Source of the DNA: Cristatella mucedo
Taxonomy: Eukaryota > Bryozoa > Phylactolaemata > Cristatellidae
Assembly (NCBI GenBank): GCA_009760855.2
Contig: WPIO01000125.1
Coordinates: 491,001 to 555,000, forward strand
Length of the DNA: 64,000 nt
Reading direction: 5' to 3'
The notes beneath the pieces were generated by a model, which worked only from the letters and a program-made list of their open reading frames with translations, made no database searches and was not told where the DNA came from. Shown here piece by piece: positions 3,537 through 62,588 of the stretch (position 1 is the stretch's first letter; each line of letters begins with the position of its first letter). A program made the translations under genes and the position numbers.

Positions 3537-6500
3537 CTGGAATGATGCAACAGATCGACGTCAGACCCAAGTTTCATGCAAAAGCAACCAACAATATGTG
3601 CATCATGCATAACAACTTTGCAGGCAACCATTCCTAGATTGCAAACGACCAACGTCTTAAACTTTGCAATCAGCAAGTTCATAGATCTCTGCTCTCCCAC
3701 TGTACTGTCTCCCACTCTCAGACCTAAGTTTCATGCAAAAGCAAACAATATTCACACAATTATAAAATATATTAGTTGATTTAACAGTCTCATGTGTATA
3801 GCAGCAAAAGAGCCTCAACCGCTTGCAGATGGCAATAAAGGATCACCCACTGCAGGATTCGAACCCTCAGTCATTAAGAGCAAGCAAGTCACATCCTGGG
3901 CTATCACAACCGACATGCACAACATGCACAATAGGCACAACAGGATGCAGGCAAAGATCCCTTATAATAATAATGCACTTGATAAAGCGCCCCCAGAAAA
4001 CTCAATCTTTATCTAGGCGCTTCACATTTGCTGCAAAGGGAAATGCAATTGAATGGTGAGTAAATTCATGCTCGATAAACAAACAACATGAATAACATGG
4101 TTAGGGGTGACATGCACAGGGTCAGCATGCAAATGTGGTAAGTGGCAGCATGCACAGTGTCAGCACGCATAAGCACATCAAGGACGAATGACAGGGACCC
4201 ACTAAATGCTGTCCTAAATAGGTGTTTATAAGTTCTTTTTAAACGTGGTCAAATCAGATGATGTTCTGACGCAAGTCGGGGATGAGTTCCAGGCATTGGG
4301 AGCATACGAACTAAATGCACGGTCTCCAAAGGATTTGAGGTTTGTATGAGGTATTTGTAGACTGTTGGATTCTGAAAGGCGGGTAGTACTATGCTTGCTT
4401 GGCCTGATGGGGGAGTAGATCTGAGAGATAGGCTGGAGTCAAAGAATGAAGTGACCTAAAAGTGAGCGAAAAAACCTTGAAGTCAATCCGTTGCTTGACT
4501 AGTAGCCAGTGCAGGTCAGCGAGAAGTGGTGTAATGTGGCAACTGCGATGCTCACGACAGACAAGCCTAGCTGCGGAGTTTTGCACCAGCTGCAATCGCC
4601 TGATCGCACATGCTGGTAGGCCAGTAAGCAGTGAGTTGCAGAAGTCGAGACGGGATGTCACGAATGCATGGACCAACTTGGACGTGGTATCCTTATGTAA
4701 ACAAGCCCGAATTTTAGCAGCGTTATGAAGCTGAAAATAGGCAGACTTGACTGTGGAGCTGATATGGTCGTCTAACGAGAGGTCGCTTTGAAATATGACA
4801 CCTAGATTTCGAGCTGATTCTACAGGAGATATGCTGGCAGAGCCAATTTTGAGCGGCAGCCTTTCCAATTTGTGAATTGATTGCGAACGACAAATGTCTA
4901 TTGTTTAGCAATCAGCAGGTCCATACATCTCTGCTCTCCTTCTGCCCTGTTTACAAGTCTACATGCGTCTCTTCTCTCTTTCTCTCCTTTTCTCATACTG
5001 CCTCTACATTTTCTGTGCATAGACTCGGGGAGCTTTTTCTTTACTTTATTCTTTGCACACGATGCACACATTACATTTGTACAGCCCCTTAATCGAACTC
5101 TAAATCTTTCTTTCTAAATCTTTTCTTGGGGCATTTTACATACACAGAATAGGAAGCATGTTAACTCATTGGTAATAACATAAAAGCACGTCAGCACACA
5201 AAAGCAATCAGGAACACGGAGCAAATGGTGAGACGAACAGCGGGTTTTAACTATGTTGTAAGTGTTGTTAATAATAATAATAATAACGCAATTGATAAAG
5301 CACCTCAGAGAACTCAATCTCTTTCTAGGCACTTTACATTTGCTGCCAATGGAAACGCGATTGAATGGTGAGTAATATCATGCTTGATAAACAACAGATA
5401 TATAATATATAATTCATTTGTATAGCACCCCAAGAGAACTTAATCTCTATTCAGGCGCTTCACACATGCCTCGGGGCTCAAGCCCCCCCCCAACTCAGCT
5501 AGGCCTTGGTCGGGGCTAGCACCATATGAATAACATGGCTAGGGGTGATATGCACAGGGTCAGCATGCAAAGGTGGTTAGTGGCAGCATGCAGTATCAGC
5601 ATGCATAAGCACATGAAGGACGAATCACAGGGACCCACTAAATGCTGTCCTAAATAGGTGTGTTTTTTAAGTTCTTTTTAAATGTGGTCAAGTCAGGGGA
5701 TGTTCTGACGCAAGTCGGGAGTGAGTTCCAGGCATTGGGAGCATACGAACTAAATGCACGGTCTCCAAAGGATTTGAGGTTTGTACGAGGTATTGGTAGA
5801 CTGTTGGATTCCGAATAGCGGGTGGTATGATGCTTGGCCTGGTGGGGGAGTAGATCTGAGAGATAGGCTGGAGCCAAAGAATGAAGTGACCTAAAAATGA
5901 GCGACAAAACCTTGAAGTCGATGGATTGCTTGACTGGAAGCCTGGTCGGCGAGAAGTAGTGCGATGTGGCAACTGCTACGCTCACGACAGACAAGCCCAG
6001 CTGCAGAGTTTTGCACCAGCTGTAAGCGCCTGCTTTCACAGGCAGGTAGACCAGCAAGCAGTGAGTTACAGAAGTCAAGACGGGATGTCACAAATGCACG
6101 GGCCAATTTAGATGTGGTATCCCTGTCCTAAACAAACACGAATTTTAGCAATGCTATAGAGTTGAAAGTAGGCGGACTTGACTAAGAAACTGATGTGGTC
6201 GCCTAGAAGAGATTGAGTTCTCCGAGGGCTCTTTATCAAATGTATTATTATTATTATGATAATGAAAGGTCATTTTGGAACACGAAACCTAGATTTTGTG
6301 CAGATTCAACAGGAGATATGCTGGCAGAGCCAATTTTGAGAATTAGCCTTTCCAGTTTCTGAATCACACTTGGTTTGCCCATAACTAGTAAGTTGGTTTT
6401 TATCAATATTCAATTTAAGAAAATTTGCTGCCATCAATGTGCGGATGTCATCAATGCATGTAGCAAGGAAGTTTGGAGAATTCGACGTGCTGGAAGGGAT

Positions 6501-8083
6501 CAAAGCAAAGGTACAACCGAGTGTCATCTGCATAGAAGTGAAAGCCTAGATTGTGCTTGGCAATTATCTCGGCAAGAGGGAGAGTATAAATCGTGAAAAG
6601 AACAGGACCAAGCACAGATCCCTGAGGTACCCCATAATTCAGATGTTTCTCGGATGATCTTTATCCACTCACATCAATACTCTGGAGTCTCCCACTGAGA
6701 TAGGACCTGAACCATTACAATGCAGTGCCAGTGATGCCCAGGTGGGATGAGAGGCACTCAAGAAGGACTTGGTGATCGATAGTATCAAAAGCTGCCAAAA
6801 GATCAAGCAAAACAAGCAGATATACTCCACATAAGTCTGTGTTCCTAAGTAGGTCGTTATACACCCGAAGCAATGCTGACTCTGTGGAGTGATTAACTCT
6901 AAAACCAGACAGGAACTTGCTAGCAAGGTTTGAAGTTTCAATATATGAGTTCAGCTGGTCTGCCACGACTCGTTCGTTCCTGTGACTTTGATAGGAACGG
7001 TAGAAGGGAGACTGGGCAGAAGTAGCATCGTGCGGTGTCTGGTTTGGGCTGCGAATGCTAGCAAACAGATGCTTTAAATCATGGCTGTTGCTCGTGGCAT
7101 CATGCCAGAGCATACCGTCGGGATTGTTCACTCGAGTGTTGCTCCCCATCCCTAGCACGAAGGCTGTTCACAGCCCTACTCGATCCTTCCGGATCTGGGT
7201 AGAATATGCTGACACATTCAGTGTAACGTGTGACCCAGAACATTTAACGGCATGATTGAAAGCTGGGAGGCCTAAAAGCAGAGGTAGATCGGTGTGTCAA
7301 CGGCATAGAAGTGAAAGCTTGGAGGGCTTCTCTCCAACGATGGTCACGGGTTTGCTCCTCTCATTGTGGAGCTTTTGCCATATTCACCGCGGACCCTATT
7401 AACCTCTCGACGTTGGTTTTACCAAGTCTGCGATAGCGCTGTGAAAAAGTTTCGGTATTCTTGAAAGTTCTTCGTAAAGCGTCAGTGTGAGGCCTTTATT
7501 TAAAACACCAGCGAGTGCGAAAGCTACCATTAGCCCCCCCCCGAGGCCATGCAATGTCGAGAAAGACAAGAGCTAATAGAGACCGGAGCGACACGAGGCT
7601 CTTAGAGCTCGACGATGAATGAGTTCATACAGTGGCACTCAGCTAACAGTACTGGTCATTAGCGACGAATAACAATTTCGCGCACGCCTTGACACACAGC
7701 AGAACGAACGCGCAAACGCTTCATTACCTGTTTAGTTGGTCTTCTGAGAAATTTGAGACGAGTATTTGCATTTTCTTGCGTTCTTCCTCTTGCTTCTCTT
7801 TCTTATTTATCTGCTTCTGCTCCGACGATGCGGCAGCATCAGCAGCGCCTTCATCCATGATCTGGTCGCCATTATTTGAGTCCTTGCTCTTTTCTGAATC
7901 CTTCTCCATATGAACTTCTGACTTATAGCTTGCTGACCCTTTACTCAGAGAACCAGGAGCAGAAGCAAGGCTACTGCCACTATCCGATTCGCGACGACCG
8001 CTGCCGGCGGTAGCCATAGCTTTTCTTACAGCTATTCCAATTCGAGCAGCCGCCTGAGCGGAAGTTGGACCGTCTTGTGCCAT
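3233..8083 (-). CDS. TAF11: TAF11, TFIID subunit 11 (two exons)
   Basis: Predicted TBP-associated factor 11 (TAFII28), the histone-fold subunit that pairs with TAF13 in TFIID for RNA polymerase II initiation in the nucleus. Exon 1 is 8083-7728 and exon 2 is 3536-3233. The join (AACAG|GTAATG donor, CATTCCAG|G acceptor) splits an Arg codon and gives 219 residues, close to the ~211 of the human protein. Residues 1-110 are low-complexity and charged. Residues 110-219 hold the conserved block [19 protein letters not shown], the helix around [18 protein letters not shown], and [12 protein letters not shown] near the end. Between EEALDV and RPKHIREA the loop is about ten residues longer than in vertebrates and Gly/Ser-rich. 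The start is the first ATG of exon 1 at 8083. The 4.19 kb intron holds two reverse-oriented LINE copies and a SINE. Identity is very likely; splice sites are inferred, not tested. Confidence 0.95.
3826..3910 (-). repeat. tRNA-like SINE fragment (family 2)
   Basis: Read in reverse, it contains GGTTCGAATCCTGCAGTGGG and a following TCCTTTATTGCC, matching the copies at 1480 and 58795. It lies inside the TAF11 intron. Confidence 0.5.
3966..4876 (-). repeat. LINE family A fragment in TAF11 intron
   Basis: A reverse-oriented 3' fragment with its (AAT)n tail at 3966. A continuous frame of about 159 codons (4868-4389) encodes the reverse-transcriptase C-terminal region, with [38 protein letters not shown] and [12 protein letters not shown]. 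The downstream part is frame-shifted. It lacks the endonuclease and RT core, so it is dead. Confidence 0.85.
5267..7320 (-). repeat. LINE family A, long copy in TAF11 intron
   Basis: A reverse-oriented copy reaching from the tail at 5267 up through the RT core near 7158. Visible RT motifs, in broken frames, are [18 protein letters not shown], an [18 protein letters not shown] block and a YADD-like strand near 6490-6540. It is interrupted by a SINE (about 5397-5522) and by a tiny plus-oriented LINE tail (about 6203-6252). A short duplicate of its RT segment sits near 7260-7320. Confidence 0.82.
5397..5522 (-). repeat. tRNA-derived SINE family 1, nested in LINE A
   Basis: Reverse-oriented. The LINE-like tail (CCCCAAGAGAACTTAATCTC) comes first, followed by a B-box region (GGGGCTCAAGCCC) and GCTAGCACC. 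Uninterrupted LINE copies read GATAAACAACATGAATAACA across this point, so the SINE clearly split the LINE. Confidence 0.7.
7728..8083 (-). CDS. TAF11: TAF11 exon 1
   Basis: Encodes residues 1-118 plus two bases of codon 119. It is Ser/Ala/Lys-rich and ends in the conserved [12 protein letters not shown], which leads into the histone fold. The donor GTAATG begins at 7727. Confidence 0.93.
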
Positions 8084-8689: not shown

Positions 8690-9557
8690 TGGAGTATATC
8701 AGAGCTTCGTTCTTGGTCCCGTTCTTTTCACGGTTTACACTCTTCCTCTTGCCGGGAAGATTGCCAAGCACAATCTAGGCTTTCACTTCTATGCAGATGA
8801 CACTAGGTTGTACCTTTGCTTTGATCCCTTCCAGCACGTCGAGCACATCGAACTGTCTCAACTCCATTGCTGCATGTATTGATGACATCCGCACATTGAT
8901 GATAGCAAATTTTCTTAAATTGAATGGTGATAAAACAACTTTACTAGGTATGGGCAAAGCAGATGTGATTCAGAAATTGGAAAGGCTAGCGCTCAAAATC
9001 GGCTCTTCCAGCATATCTCCTGTTGAATCTGCACAAAATCTAGGTTTCGTGTTCCAAAATGACCTTTCTTTAGACGACCATATCAGGTCCTCAATCACGT
9101 CTGCCTACTTTCAGCTACATAACATTGCTACAATTTGGACTTGTGTAGACAGGGATACCACATCTAAGTTTGTCCATGCATTTGTGACATCCCGTCTTGA
9201 CTTCTGTAAATCACTGCTTGCCGGTCTACCAGCCTGTGCACTCAGGCACGTACAGCTAGCTGGTGCAAAGCTCTGCAGCAAGGCTTGTCTGTCATTTGCC
9301 ACATCACACCACTTCTCGCCGACCTGCACTGGCTACCAGTCAAGCAACGCATCAACTTCAAGGTTTAATTGCTCACTTTTAAGTCCCTTCATTCTTTGGT
9401 TCCAGCCTATCTATCAGATCAACTCCCCCACCAGGCTCAGCATCGTACCACCTGCTTTTCGGAATCAAAGTGTTTACCTACACCTCATACAAACCTCCAA
9501 TCCTTTGGAGATCGTGCCTTTAGTTCGTATGGTCCCAAAGCCTGGAACTCACTCCTG
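8690..9557 (+). repeat. LINE family A, RT core to C-terminus
   Basis: Plus-oriented. Starts within the RT domain ([20 protein letters not shown]), continues through the catalytic [16 protein letters not shown] and the C-terminal blocks [20 protein letters not shown] and [19 protein letters not shown] frameshift near 9260 breaks the QNSAARLVC block. The copy stops at KAWNSL, where a reverse-oriented copy is fused. Confidence 0.85.
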
Positions 9558-10183
9558 TAATAATAATAATAATAATAATATTGCACTTGATAAAGCGCCA
9601 TCAGAGAACTTAATCTCTTTCTAGGCGCTTTACATTTGCTGCAAAGTGATACGCAATAGAATAGTAAGTAAAATCATGCTTGAAAAACAAACAAAATGAA
9701 TAACATGGTTAGGGGTTACATGCACTGGGTCAGCATGCAAATGTGGTTAGTGGCAGCATGAACAGTGTCAGCACGCATAAGCACATCGAGGACGAATCAC
9801 AAGGACCCACTAAATGCTGTCCTAAATAGGTATGTTTTTAAGTTTCTTTTAAATGTGGTCAGGTCAGGGGATGTTTGATGCAGGTCGGGAGGGAGTTCCA
9901 GGCTGTCGGAGCATACGAGCTAAATGCACGGTCTCCAAAGGATTTAAGGTTTGTACGAGGTATTTCTAGACTGTTGGATTCCGAAAAGCGAGTGGTACGA
10001 TGCTTTGCCTGATGGGGTAGTATCTCTGAAAGATAGGCTGGAGCCATAGAATGAAGAGACCTAAAAGTGAGCGAGCGACAAAACCTTGAAGTCAATCCGT
10101 TGCTTGACTGGTAACCAGTGCAGGTCGGCGAGAAGTGGAGTAATGTGGCAACTGCGACGCTCCGTCTGTCACGCCTTTCTTGT
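9558..10183 (-). repeat. LINE family A, 3' fragment
   Basis: Reverse-oriented, with an (AAT)n tail at 9558. Includes [20 protein letters not shown] and the [10 protein letters not shown] region, with the 5' break near 10183. It abuts plus-oriented copies on both sides. Confidence 0.8.
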
Positions 10184-34200: not shown

Positions 34201-37200
34201 ACTTCTCTAGCTTCTTTGTTAGCAAGATAGAATAGATTAGAGAGCTCACCCCTAAGGTAGCAGCATCATTTCTGTTCTCATGTCACTCCACAACAACTCC
34301 AAAAGACCCCCTCTCCCAATTCCATGCAGCACTTTAATGTCTACATTCAAGAAGGCCATGGGTGACCTCATCCTAAAACTCATCTCTCCCACTCAAAGAA
34401 GACTACTAGTCCTATAGACCCTATTCCCACTGTCCGACTTCTATGATGCATACATCTGCAGCCATGCATAACTAGCATTAATAAATATATCCATAGCCTC
34501 AGGTCATGGCCCTGCACCTTTCAAAAAGGCTGTTGTTAGACCATTAATTAAAAAGGCAACATTAGACTAAGAGAACTTAAGCAGCGCTTCCGCCCAGTCT
34601 CCAGTCTACCACTCCTATCAAAGACATTGGAACGAGTTGTAGCAGGCCAGCTGAACTGTTATATTAAAATTCAAACATAGCAAGTAATTTCCTGTCTGGT
34701 TGTAGAGCTAATCACAGTCAGCATTGCTTAGGGCGTATCACGACCTTCTCAGGAAAGCAGACTTCTTGGTTAGGAGGACAGGACTTCCTAGTTAGCTTAG
34801 GTGTCATATTCCAAAGCGACCTCTCGTTAGACGACCACATCAGCTCCACAGTCAAATCTGCCTATTTTCAGCTTCATAACATTGCTAAAATTCGGGCTTG
34901 TTTACATAAGGATACCACGTCCAAGTTGGTCCATGCATTCGTGACATCCCGTCTCGACTTCTGCAACTCACTGCTTACTGGCCTACCAGCATGTGCGAGC
35001 AGGCGATTGCAGCTGGTGCAAAACTCCGCAGCTAGGCTTGTCTGTCGTGAGCCTCGCATTTGCCACATTACTCCACTTCTCGCCGACCTGCACTGGCTAC
35101 CAGTGAGGCAACGGATTGACTTCAAGGTTTTGTCGCTCACTTTTAGGTCTCTTCATTCTATGGCTCCAGCCTATCTTTCAGATATACTACCCCATCAGGC
35201 CAAGCATCGTACCACCCGCTTTTCGGAATCCAACAGTCTGGAAATTCCTCGTACAAACCTTAAATCCTTTGGAGACCGTGCATTTAGCTCGTATGCTCCC
35301 AAAGCCTGGAACTCCCTCCCAACCTGCGTCAGAACATCCCATGACCTGACCACATTTAAAAGAAACTTAAAAACACACCTATTTAGGACAGCATTTAGTG
35401 GGTCCCTGTGATTCGTCCTTGATGTGCTTATGCGTGCTGACACTGTGCATGCTGCCACTAACCACATTTGCATGCTGACCCTGTGCATGTCACCCCTAAC
35501 CATATCATTCATTTTGTTTGTTTTTCAAGCATGATTTTACTTACCATTCAATTGCATATCACTTTGCAGCAAATGTAAATCGCCTAGAAAGAGATTAAGT
35601 TCTCTGAGGGCACTTTATCAAGTGCAATATTATTATTATTATTATTATTACCTTTGAAGGCATTTAAGTTAGCTCCCTAGCCCACCAAGCCGGCAAACCC
35701 ATCAGTTACAGCCTTGTGAAGACCAGCCATACTGGCATCTCAACGATTGTGCCAGTACGGTCAGCTGAGCTTCAGCACAAAGCTGAGAGCAGCGAAGCAG
35801 AGCATTGGTGCAAACGGACCAGGGCATCACAGAGGTGTGTGGTAACCCAGCAGAGGCCTGTGGGCACAAAACGGCTGCTCTAGCCGCACATATACACCGC
35901 CACCAGGTGACGTTGATATTGCTATGGCCAATATGCCCATAGAAAAGAAAAAGACAATTTTACGATGCTGTATGTGCAACTATATCGCAGGACATGCTTA
36001 TATATGCAGTGCTGGCACACAAATCGTGCGCACCCTGGGGATCAAGGTACAAACCTAATTATTTCAGCGTTTTACGGACTGCTGATAAAAAATCCACCAA
36101 AACACGGAATTCGCACATTTAGCAATATTTGTTACAAATCATGCATGTCATTACCTTGGTTTTCTTACAAGGTGCAAAAACGTGAAAAATCACCATGCTT
36201 TTGCAGTATCTGTGGGTATTTTTACAGCTGACATAGTGGTCATTTTCGAAGAGTATTGTTATGCAGCACCGTCTGAGCACACTTGGAGTAAGTAATTGGT
36301 ATTGTTTTCCTGATGCATAACGAAAATAAGACCAACCAAACAGTTATGGCAATCATGGCATCACCATCAAGGTGGATGACCTCACTCTACAGATTGGCTC
36401 ATCTGGCATCATGCCAGAGACGTCTGCCCATATTTAGGGATTGGAACTCTCTTAAGGATTCTGTCACTACCCACACTGACATTGTATCATTAAAGTGAAA
36501 ACTAAAGCAGCATCTGCTCCTCTCAGCTTTCCCTGCGAACCACTGAATTGTATGTTTTGTTCCCATTTTCTTGCTTGCGTACCTCTGATCTAGTATGATC
36601 TAGTGCATTTTACTAACCAGAGCCACATCAACCAGTGGCCTATAGTGTCTTCTTGTCTCTTTTTGCTTAGTTGCATAAGTAAGAAACTTGTGTTCTTTTG
36701 CATGCATGTCTATGCACGCTACCGTACATGTTATTAACTCTTTGTGATTCCTTCCCTTTTAGCAAGTTAAAAACGACCTGCATATCAATTTAGTTCTCTT
36801 AATGTGCTAGGAAAACTATATACTATCATTATTGTTAGATTTACTGGAAGCACCAAGTAAATATATATATAATATATAATTTATTTGTATAGCGCCCCAA
36901 GAGAACCTAATCTCTATTCAGGCGCTTAACATATGCCTTGGGGCTCGAGCCCACGACCTCAGCCAGACCTTGGTCGGGGCGAGCACCTTAACCACTGTAC
37001 CAAACCAGCTCGCTCTCCCTAATTAATAGTCCCTTATGGTAGCATTGCTTGGCATCTATTTTGAAAAGCATGCAATGTTTGAGATTGGTATCGATTGACA
37101 AAGTGTGCAAAGGTATCGTTGCAGCACTGTATACAACAAGTAGGTTTTGAAATAGGTTTACGATTTAGGCTTTTCGGTTTAGGATTTAGGGTTAAGCATT

Positions 37201-59700: not shown

Positions 59701-61476
59701 TCTAGAAAGCGATTGGTTTCTCTGAATGGTGCTACATCAAACATATTATGTATTCTTACTATTATTTGCTTCGAATTCGAATTATCCTTTGCAATCAAAT
59801 GCAAGCTGACACTATATTTTCTCACTTAAAAACTGACTTGTTTCTGTTCCAGCATACGTTAAGTGCCTAGAAAGAGATGTAATTCTCTTGGAGTGTTCTA
59901 CAAATGTCTTTGCTGTTATCAATCCCATTCATCAATGCAACGTGTACAAATGGGATACGTCTCCTTATACAGACATCATTTCCCAGTCATTTGCTCTGGT
60001 TAGCTCACGGAACCTTTGCATTGCTAGGCTCTTCAAATTCATCTTTGTTCCTAACTCAAAGGCGAATGCATTTGAGTGGCCCTAACGTATTGCCGTACTC
60101 TTATTATTTACAAGCCAGGCAAAATTGCATTTATAAAGCGAATAGCATTTCACATTCCATCATGCGCCGCCAAATTCTTCACGATATTCTGTCAAATCTT
60201 ACTTTTCGTTATTGTCTGCAATGCATATCACACACAAGAATAATAATATAAACTTAATGCAATCTATAACTAGGGAAGCTGGTTCCATATTAGGAAACTA
60301 AGGATATGAATGAGTTTACTTATGTGTCTCTTCAGGGTTTAGTCCAACATTTCTGTGTGGATATTTCTGCGTATTTCGTTTAAAGTCTTTTACGATCGTT
60401 CAGTCTGGATCACGAGATTTTTACGGCACTGAAAGCGCCTGACTTTGTTTTACAACTATGTAGCAGACAGCATAAGTATAAGATCACTGAAACCAACGTG
60501 CTGCCACTCCCTGGATTTACGATAAAGATTTTACTCATTCAAGTGCGCAGTATTATGTTTACATATGAAGTACCTAACAATACCTTGCCGCAAAGCTATG
60601 GAAATGCCTCGAGTTACCGCTACTCGACCGGACGGTAAGGAAGACTATCACCGAGGTCGGTTGTCAGTTCTTGTACAAGATGCTGCACTGAAGGCCAGCA
60701 TAGGAAATAATTAACCTTTTATCCTGTACTACCTTGGCAAGTCGGTATGGTATGTCGGTACGAATAAGGTGCCCCACGCTGAAATAGCACAGTTAACATT
60801 TTAAGTGGCCGGGCGTTTGCATTACATATCCTCGAACTACCAGAATGCACTTAAGTTGCTTTAAATAGAATTAGGAAAGCTCACCAGGTTTATCTTGAGA
60901 CAAATTCCTAACGGTGGCCTTCACAGTTTATGGGCGCACGTTAGCGAGCAAAGGATCGCAGAAGGGATACGTCGCCAGCGTAGTGCTGTAGAAAGCCGGT
61001 TCTGCAGTTGTACACAGCCACTTATTGAGTGAAGTGAATGAATAACAACTTTAATCCTTTAATAATATTTAATAATCTTGGTAAGGATATATCTCAATAG
61101 AGCAAATTTCACAGGTCGCCGTCGCGTTCGTCGTTCCCACTGACCGCTTCAGACCAGACGCTGATTAAGGGACCCCTGAGGCGACGCATCGTGGCCAAGT
61201 AAATATGTAAAGCCGGTCATAAGGGAGTTAAGGTTTTAAGGGAGTACTTATTTATCACATCGCTATTTCTGGAGTTCATTGCGCTTAATATTTGATTTTC
61301 CCGAATGGGTGGACAGCAAGATCGAGTTCGTGCACCGGAAGCGCGACATTCCCTGTACATCAGAACAGCCCACGTGCGGCAGGAGGCGGAACTTTTCATA
61401 CCATATTTAGAAGTAGGCTCCCCACTCCCGACCTGCCTTATTGCGACCGGAACCACGACTGGAAGTCACGCGGCAA
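59701..61476. other. Spacer upstream of Jun
   Basis: A LINE-A tail relic near 59840-59915, otherwise no recognised gene. The final few hundred bases are more GC-rich and probably belong to the Jun control region. Confidence 0.45.
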
Positions 61477-61484
61477 TGATGTCA
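61477..61484. promoter_or_regulatory. TRE/CRE-like site upstream of Jun
   Basis: TGATGTCA, the reverse complement of TGACATCA, the variant AP-1/ATF site known from the c-JUN promoter. It lies 296 bases before the Jun start codon. Confidence 0.55.
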
Positions 61485-61491
61485 TTACCAA

Positions 61492-61496
61492 CCAAT
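61492..61496 (+). promoter_or_regulatory. CCAAT box upstream of Jun
   Basis: CCAAT in the context ACCAACCAATCACA, fitting an NF-Y-type site. It starts 20 bases before the second TGATGTCA. Confidence 0.55.
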
Positions 61497-61511
61497 CACA
61501 ATCTGGTAAGA

Positions 61512-61519
61512 TGATGTCA
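61512..61519. promoter_or_regulatory. Proximal TRE/CRE-like site of Jun
   Basis: A second TGATGTCA. Expected partners are Jun/ATF2-type dimers, which would make the gene autoregulated. Confidence 0.6.
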
Positions 61520-61523
61520 GTAT

Positions 61524-61533
61524 CTAAATATAA
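61524..61533. promoter_or_regulatory. MEF2-type site of Jun
   Basis: CTAAATATAA matches the MEF2 consensus YTAWWWWTAR at every position. It starts 12 bases after the start of the proximal TGATGTCA. Confidence 0.6.
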
Positions 61534-61574
61534 CCGCTTAGTCAGATTATATATTCTGTGCGATGTGTCAGCGC

Positions 61575-61581
61575 TGACTCA
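61575..61581. promoter_or_regulatory. Consensus AP-1 site near Jun start region
   Basis: TGACTCA, the exact AP-1 element. It falls close to where transcription is expected to begin if the promoter spacing is conserved. Confidence 0.5.
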
Positions 61582-61646
61582 TAAGCGGTTGGTCCAACAT
61601 CGCGTCGTTGTCCTCGGTACCTGTGTCTGTGCATCGAGCGGCGAGG

Positions 61647-61653
61647 TGAGTCA
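61647..61653. promoter_or_regulatory. Second consensus AP-1 site, Jun 5' leader
   Basis: TGAGTCA (complement of TGACTCA), 120 bases before the start codon, probably in the transcribed leader. Confidence 0.4.
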
Positions 61654-61772
61654 CCACCGAGGTGCCTTCGGTGTCCGGCAGCGGCTTTCATTGAACGGTC
61701 GGCTTTGCTTAGTGGCCCCACTGCTTTCCTCCGGTGATAGCCGATTCCGCTGTTCCCGTTGCAGTTGCCGGA

Positions 61773-62588
61773 ATGGAAACGAGCATGTACCAGGACGATG
61801 GCGCCATTTCGGGGTCTAGCACATTAAAGAAGTCAATGACTCTCGATTTCTCCGGATGTAATTCGAAGCAGAACAGGTTTCAGAGTTTGTTGGCCTCGCC
61901 GGATCTTCACTTGCTCAAGCTTGGCTCGCCCGAGCTCGAAAAGATGCTAATTCAGGCCAACGCCGGCAGTCTAGCGACGCCGACTCCAACACAGTTCATA
62001 TATCCTCGATATCCTGTGACGGAGGAGCAGGAGGCCTACGCTAGGGGCTTTGTCGAGGCGCTTGCCGAGCTGCATCAAGGAAGATTCACGACCGAGGCTA
62101 CTAACATCGGTGATGAACCAAGCAATGGCAGCAATACGTATTCAACTCTACAGCCTCTGTCGTTACCTGTCTCAGCTTGCGCGACTACTCAGCAGGTTGC
62201 CGGCGTTATACAAAGCAGAAAGGGTTTACCAGCTTCGAACGCTGTACCTATGGAACCGTTCCTGAGCTACAGTCCTTCGCCCAGCGTCAAGGAGGAGCCG
62301 CAAACGGTGCCCAGCTCGCCTCCGACCTCCCCGGTTGACATGGAAGACCAAGAGAGGCAGAAGCTGGACCGCAAGAGGGCCCGAAACCGCATTGCTGCGC
62401 GAAAATGCCGAACACGTAAGATGGAGCGCATTTCGAAGCTGGAGGAGAAAGTAGCCGATCTGAAAAATAAGAACGCCGAACTTGCATCCGCAGCATCGAG
62501 CTTACACGAGCAGGTTGCCGCACTCAAGCAGCAGATCGGTGAGCATGTAAAAAGAGGGTGCCAGTTTAACGGCCTACCCATTTTATGA
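61773..62588 (+). CDS. JUN: Jun-family bZIP transcription factor
   Basis: A 271-residue nuclear AP-1 protein that dimerises through its zipper and binds TGA(C/G)TCA. The start ATG at 61773 gives METSMYQDD, matching the METTFYDD start of vertebrate c-Jun; the frame runs further upstream but without an ATG. Blocks in order: KKSMTLDF (delta/JNK-docking region, ~19-26); two Ser-Pro sites in [18 protein letters not shown] (S42, S52, equivalent to human S63/S73); TPTPTQF (69-75); [20 protein letters not shown] (82-101); a VKEEPQTVP sumoylation-type motif (162-170); [10 protein letters not shown]; basic region [20 protein letters not shown] (191-210) with the redox-type Cys at 202; and a zipper with Leu at 213, 220, 227, 234 and 241. 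It ends RGCQF. A single exon, as in vertebrate JUN. Shorter than human c-Jun (331), because the central Gln/Pro/Gly-rich region is reduced. A JunB/JunD assignment is not meaningful outside vertebrates. Confidence 0.97.

What the first reader, a model, noticed from the sequence alone, without database searches (positions are those of the whole stretch)
61477..61581. Jun promoter looks conserved in site order and spacing with the vertebrate c-JUN promoter
CCAAT (61492), TGATGTCA (61512) and CTAAATATAA (61524) start 20 and 12 bases apart. From memory, the human c-JUN proximal promoter has CCAAT at -91, TGACATCA at -71 and a MEF2/RSRF site at -59: the same order and the same two offsets. Here the TRE variant is the reverse complement of the human one. 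If real, this is a promoter grammar kept since early animals, and it predicts a start site near 61583.
Basis: partly seen in the sequence, partly recalled or inferred. Interest (0 to 1): 0.8.

Follow-up and report, generated by a model that had tools for sequence, protein, structure and literature searches.

The report
Invertebrate Jun promoter resembling human JUN's
The DNA just before a Jun gene in an unnamed invertebrate carries three control sites in the order reported for the human JUN gene, with at least one of the two distances checked as identical; this may be a control switch inherited from a common ancestor, but it rests on one species, and that species' other Jun gene lacks it.

Summary
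The sites are real: CCAAT 61492, TGATGTCA 61512, CTAAATATAA 61524, 240-281 bp before the start codon of a single-frame Jun gene (61773-62588; Pfam Jun 8.5e-29). The human TRE at -71 and the TRE-to-MEF2 offset of 12 were confirmed from print; the human CCAAT offset (20) is recalled only. The exact triple occurs once in the 572 Mb genome; TRE plus MEF2 at offset 12 arose in 0 of 100,000 promoter shuffles. Chance is unlikely, but the match was picked after the fact. Four of the window's 14 strict AP-1/ATF sites lie within 180 bp here (17 of 200,000 random placements), so an AP-1/ATF-rich, probably self-regulating promoter is the firmer reading. Against deep conservation: the paralog Jun2 lacks the MEF2 site and this TRE; no other species could be compared; GC-box forms and TTACCTCA are absent; sequence outside the sites hardly matches. 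Both TRE forms are one transition from TGACGTCA, so no inversion is needed. The mitochondrial code points to a bilaterian invertebrate; 'since early animals' is unsupported. Start predicted near 61581.

The parts
61477..61484 (+). distal TRE/ATF-like site TGATGTCA
   Evidence: the paralog Jun2 has TGACTCA at the same distance (-71) from its TATA
61492..61496 (+). CCAAT box (NF-Y type; factor recalled)
   Evidence: the only CCAAT or ATTGG found between 61000 and 62000
61512..61519 (+). proximal TRE/ATF-like site TGATGTCA, placed like human TGACATCA at -71
   Evidence: no such site at this place in Jun2
61524..61533 (+). MEF2/RSRF-type match CTAAATATAA (YTAWWWWTAR)
   Evidence: offset 12 from the TRE as in human; two MEF2-type MADS exons in the genome, named by eye
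61538..61544 (+). degenerate AP-1-like TTAGTCA, starting 10 bp before the TATA-like site
   Evidence: Jun2 has TGAGTCA at the same offset from its TATATAA
61548..61554 (+). TATA-like element TATATAT
61575..61581 (+). AP-1 site TGACTCA; A61581 is the predicted transcription start (BBCABW match)
   Evidence: start inferred, not mapped
61647..61653 (+). AP-1 site TGAGTCA in the presumed leader (overlaps a GTGAGT donor-like sequence)
61773..62588 (+). Jun coding sequence, one open frame, 271 aa plus stop

Best explanation
This is the core promoter of a Jun gene in a bilaterian invertebrate. Jun/ATF dimers bind the cluster of AP-1/ATF sites and switch the gene on in a positive feedback loop; NF-Y at CCAAT, MEF2 at CTAAATATAA and TBP at TATATAT place RNA polymerase so that transcription starts near 61581. 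The CCAAT/TRE/MEF2 block has the human JUN order and spacing, most likely because the arrangement came from a common bilaterian ancestor (with a CRE-like TGACGTCA that became TGACATCA in one line and TGATGTCA in the other) and was lost in the sister gene Jun2. Shown: sites, gene, clustering, rarity, paralog comparison. Inferred: binding, start site, autoregulation, ancestry.
For: Jun gene. Sites and offsets. Exact triple once in 572 Mb. 0 of 100,000 shuffles. Spacing test 9.6e-5 exact, 9.9e-4 within one base. AP-1/ATF cluster: 4 of 14 strict sites within 180 bp, 17 of 200,000 placements. Human TRE and MEF2 sequences and their offset from print. Jun2 also has AP-1-type sites, at -71 and -10 from TATA as in Jun1. 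MEF2-type exons (2), an SRF-like gene and CREB-like exons (2) are present, named by eye.
Against: Jun2, which shares the ARKCRTRK basic region, has no MEF2-type match near its start, no TRE at -36 and no CCAAT at this spacing; the sites the paralogs share (-71, -10) are not the human-spaced ones. The two TGATGTCA copies share ATGATGTCA 35 bp apart, so the proximal one could be a local duplicate. Against 35 printed human bases: linker 0 of 4, outside sites and linker 5 of 13. GC-box forms and TTACCTCA absent in 61001-61800. The promoter is not CpG-poor (observed/expected 1.15 in 61440-61600, window 0.62), so CpG decay of a CRE is not specially favoured. TRE-N4-MEF2 pairs are not clearly enriched in the genome once one repeated sequence is set aside: 29 places, 13 of them variants of that sequence, against 12 for the reversed control. 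One species only; human CCAAT offset recalled.
Confidence: 0.5

Rival explanations
1. An ordinary AP-1-regulated Jun promoter in which the human-like spacing is coincidence: CCAAT, AP-1/ATF and AT-rich sites are common in inducible promoters, the proximal TRE arose by local duplication, and the match was noticed after the fact.
For: Jun2 keeps only the -71 and -10 AP-1-type places; exact triples also turned up in unrelated sequence: 1 stretch in viral contigs, 2 in prokaryote contigs; one other place in this genome is one base off; little similarity outside the sites.
Against: Spacing test 9.6e-5, 0 of 100,000 shuffles, one exact place in 572 Mb and it is at Jun.
Confidence: 0.33
2. The spacing is functional but convergent: cooperative binding of NF-Y, ATF/Jun and MEF2 favours offsets near whole helical turns, so selection built the same arrangement twice.
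For: Offsets 20 and 12 are near two and one turns (inference); absence in Jun2 is easy if Jun1 gained it.
Against: No clear sign that the offset is favoured elsewhere: 29 places for TRE-N4-MEF2, 13 of them one repeated sequence and variants, against 12 for the reversed control.
Confidence: 0.14
3. CTAAATATAA is not a MEF2 site but an AT-rich TATA-type element (compatible with the other readings).
For: Three octamers in 61521-61532 score 7 of 8 against TATAWAWR, as many as the downstream TATATATT.
Against: TATATAT at 61548 corresponds to Jun2's TATATAA, each with an AP-1-like heptamer starting 10 bp before it, and lies 33 bp before the initiator match at 61581.
Confidence: 0.12

Closest known systems
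Human c-JUN proximal promoter (TRE at -71, MEF2 site 12 bases further)
   Same: TGAnnTCA-type TRE, MEF2-type site, order, and TRE-to-MEF2 offset 12; CCAAT offset 20 by recall; predicted start at about the same distance
   Different: TRE centre TG instead of CA; no GC-box form and no TTACCTCA in 61001-61800; second TRE at -106 from 61583 (human distal TRE at -190, recalled)
Jun2 promoter of the same genome (C144, L010 minus strand)
   Same: AP-1-type sites at -71 and -10 from TATA, a TATATA box, Jun gene in one open frame
   Different: no MEF2-type match near the start, no TRE at -36, CCAAT inverted at -86 and forward at -145, an extra TGACTC at -27; ungapped identity 32 of 90, reached by 6 of 86 control stretches
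Chicken JUN promoter (-700 to 0)
   Same: a Jun promoter responding to the JNK pathway (PMC11508107, passages)
   Different: conservation reported among birds; the passages seen do not describe this module

Membership tests
Jun genes | Jun N-terminal domain | tested here: met
   PF03957 8.5e-29, 101.5 bits, cut-off 26.7
Jun genes | Jun-type bZIP | tested here: met
   69% identity to a JunD chain, 62% to a chain named Transcription factor AP-1
c-JUN-type proximal promoter | CCAAT, TRE, MEF2 in this order | tested here: met
   window; the place of CCAAT in human is recalled
c-JUN-type proximal promoter | TRE-to-MEF2 offset 12 | tested here: met
   window; human from printed primers
c-JUN-type proximal promoter | CCAAT-to-TRE offset 20 | tested here: inconclusive
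   20 in the window; human value recalled, not found in print
c-JUN-type proximal promoter | GC box and distal TTACCTCA TRE | tested here: not met
   GGGCGG, CCGCCC, GGGGCG, CGCCCC, TTACCTCA, TGAGGTAA: none in 61001-61800
c-JUN-type proximal promoter | module shared by the paralog Jun2 | tested here: not met
c-JUN-type proximal promoter | module kept in related species | not testable with these tools
   the genome tool holds no relatives; no Jun locus in viral, prokaryote or phage collections
c-JUN-type proximal promoter | binding and induction by Jun/ATF and MEF2 | not testable with these tools
   needs ChIP and reporter assays

The most novel reading that the evidence does not exclude
The CCAAT/TRE/MEF2 module of JUN, with its spacing, was already present in the last common ancestor of vertebrates and this invertebrate and has stayed fixed to the base while the surrounding sequence was replaced: a promoter grammar conserved across bilaterians without alignable sequence.
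Probability: 0.45. Interest if true: 0.78.

Novelty: new variant of a known kind. Interest (0 to 1): 0.5.

Why it matters
Promoters are generally expected to diverge beyond recognition between phyla. If site spacing at an immediate-early gene has been held for the age of bilaterians, the complex of NF-Y, ATF/Jun and MEF2 would have to be geometrically constrained, and Jun promoters of many phyla would make this directly testable. If it is coincidence, it is a useful warning of how precise a chance match at one locus can look.

Tried and rejected
Jun relatives in viral contigs and genome contigs: 64 and 454 stretches matched a peptide pattern, 0 confirmed; phages by tblastn: none. Module pattern: 1 stretch in viral contigs, 2 in genome contigs, taken as chance (only L001 was looked at, 601 bases). 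The third Jun-domain place (C144:5221611-5221922) looks like a truncated copy and was left out of the promoter comparison. The MAFFT alignment of the Jun1 and Jun2 promoters did not line up the TATA boxes, so I chose a TATA-anchored ungapped comparison after seeing it. A Fos promoter for comparison: bZIP_1 gave 12 places and bZIP_2 23; 9 short stretches were fetched, 7 of them read, none recognised as Fos; dropped. NF-YA search did not complete. Literature: 10 searches, several with capped listings (25 of 8,419 papers, 15 of 32, 15 of 39); no row that I saw was a paper on conservation of the Jun promoter in invertebrates. Two papers on the human promoter were not held. Pfam on three window ORFs that look like reverse transcriptase: no family. 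PHROGs: none. Rfam and tRNA scans of the window: none.

Full report
What is there. The window is bases 491001-555000 of contig C28 of an unnamed 572 Mb genome in 688 contigs. At 61773-62588 an uninterrupted frame codes for a 271-residue Jun protein: Pfam Jun 8.5e-29 and bZIP_1 3.9e-15, bZIP 69% identical to a JunD chain. No ATG starts between 61564 and 61772. PMC10680820 (passages) reports two AUGs in vertebrate JUN and only the main one in the invertebrates examined; the start MET.. looks like that main AUG (vertebrate start peptide recalled).

The observation. CCAAT 61492, TGATGTCA 61512 and CTAAATATAA 61524 are as stated. Further sites: TGATGTCA 61477, TTAGTCA 61538, TATATAT 61548, TGACTCA 61575, TGAGTCA 61647. 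The window has 14 strict AP-1/ATF sites (TGACATCA, TGATGTCA, TGACGTCA, TGASTCA); four lie within 180 bp here, a clustering that 17 of 200,000 random placements reached. This part does not depend on any comparison with human.

The human side. In print: GTGACATCAT at -72 to -63 of human JUN (PMC11108773, passages); the ChIP primers gggtgacatcatgggctatt (PMC5706420, passages; HaCaT cells) and CAGTCAACCCCTAAAAATAGCCC (PMC2825243, passages; T47D cells) overlap by 8 bases and give TGACATCA, 4 bases, CTATTTTTAG: offset 12. A MEF2 site upstream of the start is mentioned in PMC3413818 (passages), its role in induction in PMC2628930 (passages). Against the 35 joined human bases the window matches 17: TRE 6 of 8, MEF2 6 of 10, linker 0 of 4, the rest 5 of 13. 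So the likeness lies in sites and spacing. TGACATCA and TGATGTCA each differ by one base from the palindromic CRE TGACGTCA, both by a transition, so the two forms can descend from one site in place; an inversion is not needed. The promoter today is not CpG-poor (1.15 in 61440-61600 against 0.62 for the window), so CpG decay is possible but not specially favoured.

How unlikely. In 572 Mb the flexible pattern (16 by 13 spacings, four TRE forms) has 5 places, reversed control 0: Jun with spacers 15 and 4, one on C111 with 14 and 4, three others. TRE-N4-MEF2 has 29 places, reversed control 12; 13 of the 29 are TGACGTCATGTACTAAATTTAG (6) or close variants of it (7), so without that sequence there is little excess. 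Of 100,000 dinucleotide shuffles of 61283-61582, 1,920 had the TRE 8-mer, 1,413 a MEF2 match, 35 both, 0 at offset 12. With the sites given, exact spacing has 9.6e-5, within one base 9.9e-4, within two 2.6e-3. These values ignore that the comparison was chosen after reading. Exact triples in unrelated sequence exist: 1 stretch in viral contigs, 2 in prokaryote contigs.

The paralog. A second Jun gene, C144 minus strand (Pfam Jun 1.6e-26), is identical at 164 of 341 aligned columns (48%) and shares ARKCRTRK in the basic region, where the two solved-structure chains have ASKCRKRK and ASKSRKRK; bZIP identity to Jun1 is 73%, against 69% and 62% for those chains. This suggests, on four short sequences and no tree, duplication after the split from vertebrates. 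Anchored on TATATAA, its promoter has TGACTCA at -71 and TGAGTCA at -10, where Jun1 has TGATGTCA at -71 and TTAGTCA at -10. It has no MEF2-type match within one mismatch near the start (the 7 matches in L010 lie at 5858-7007, over 2 kb upstream), no TRE at -36, and its nearest CCAAT boxes lie at -86 (inverted) and -145. Overall ungapped identity, 32 of 90, is not significant: 6 of 86 TATATA-anchored controls reach it, and the best of 120 other offsets gives 33. So the sites that the paralogs share are not the ones that fit human. This counts against deep conservation, unless Jun2 lost the block.

Age. COX1 on C688 scores 882.8 bits with code 5 and 861.4 with code 4 against the best solved chain. 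The codes differ in AGR (Ser or Arg) and in ATA, so the test mixes both; code 9 was not tried. AGR as Ser is known from invertebrate bilaterians and not from sponges, cnidarians, vertebrates or tunicates (recalled). The block ND1, ND6, CYTB, ND4L, ND4, ND5 on one strand (genes named by eye) recalls lophotrochozoans (recalled, untested). 'Since early animals' is therefore not supported.

Start site and mechanism. A donor-like AG|GTGAGT at 61645/61646 and a pyrimidine-rich CAG ending at 61764 would allow a leader intron of 119 bases; by eye only. Possible trans factors, named by eye from translations: two MEF2-type MADS exons, an SRF-like gene, two CREB-like exons; NF-Y was not tested because the search did not complete. 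Expected action, from human JUN: Jun feeds back on its own gene through AP-1 sites (PMC11108773, passages); p38 can act through the AP-1 and MEF2 sites (PMC2628930, passages); the rest is recalled. For this animal binding and induction are inferred.

Verdict. Observation confirmed; a Jun promoter with an AP-1/ATF cluster is firm; the human-like spacing is real and unlikely by chance; whether it is inherited is about even. Because the GC-box and TTACCTCA features failed and Jun2 lacks the module, it is filed as a variant, not as a full member of the human-type promoter. No account of this module in an invertebrate appeared among the rows listed in ten searches of open-licence papers (listings capped).

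Noticed in passing
G000:C144:5221611-5221922 (L016 about 1368-2000, minus): A partial copy of Jun2, about 4.4 kb upstream of it, whose frame runs into other sequence before the bZIP part; probably a pseudogene fragment.
   Followed up: partly
L038/L039, L029/L031, L026/L028, Jun1/Jun2: MEF2-type, CREB-like, CREB3-like (all named by eye) and Jun genes occur in two copies on different contigs, while one SRF-like locus was seen; could reflect a large duplication.
   Followed up: no
window 4389-4868 (-), 8791-9624 (+), 34926-35411 (+): Related ORFs that look by eye like part of a non-LTR reverse transcriptase; no Pfam family at 0.001.
   Followed up: partly
G000:C688 (L024, L025): Mitochondrial contig of 21 kb with a repeated segment: the same 82- and 87-residue frames at L025 1674/2200 and 3789/4315, and on the other strand at L024 3075/2534.
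   Followed up: no
G000, e.g. C26:1019909, C131:96381, C188:4010667: TGACGTCATGTACTAAATTTAG, a CRE followed by a MEF2-like match at offset 12, at 6 places, with 7 close variants; looks like a repeat.
   Followed up: no
window 61646-61764: Donor-like GTGAGT and acceptor-like CAG that could bound a short intron in the Jun leader.
   Followed up: no
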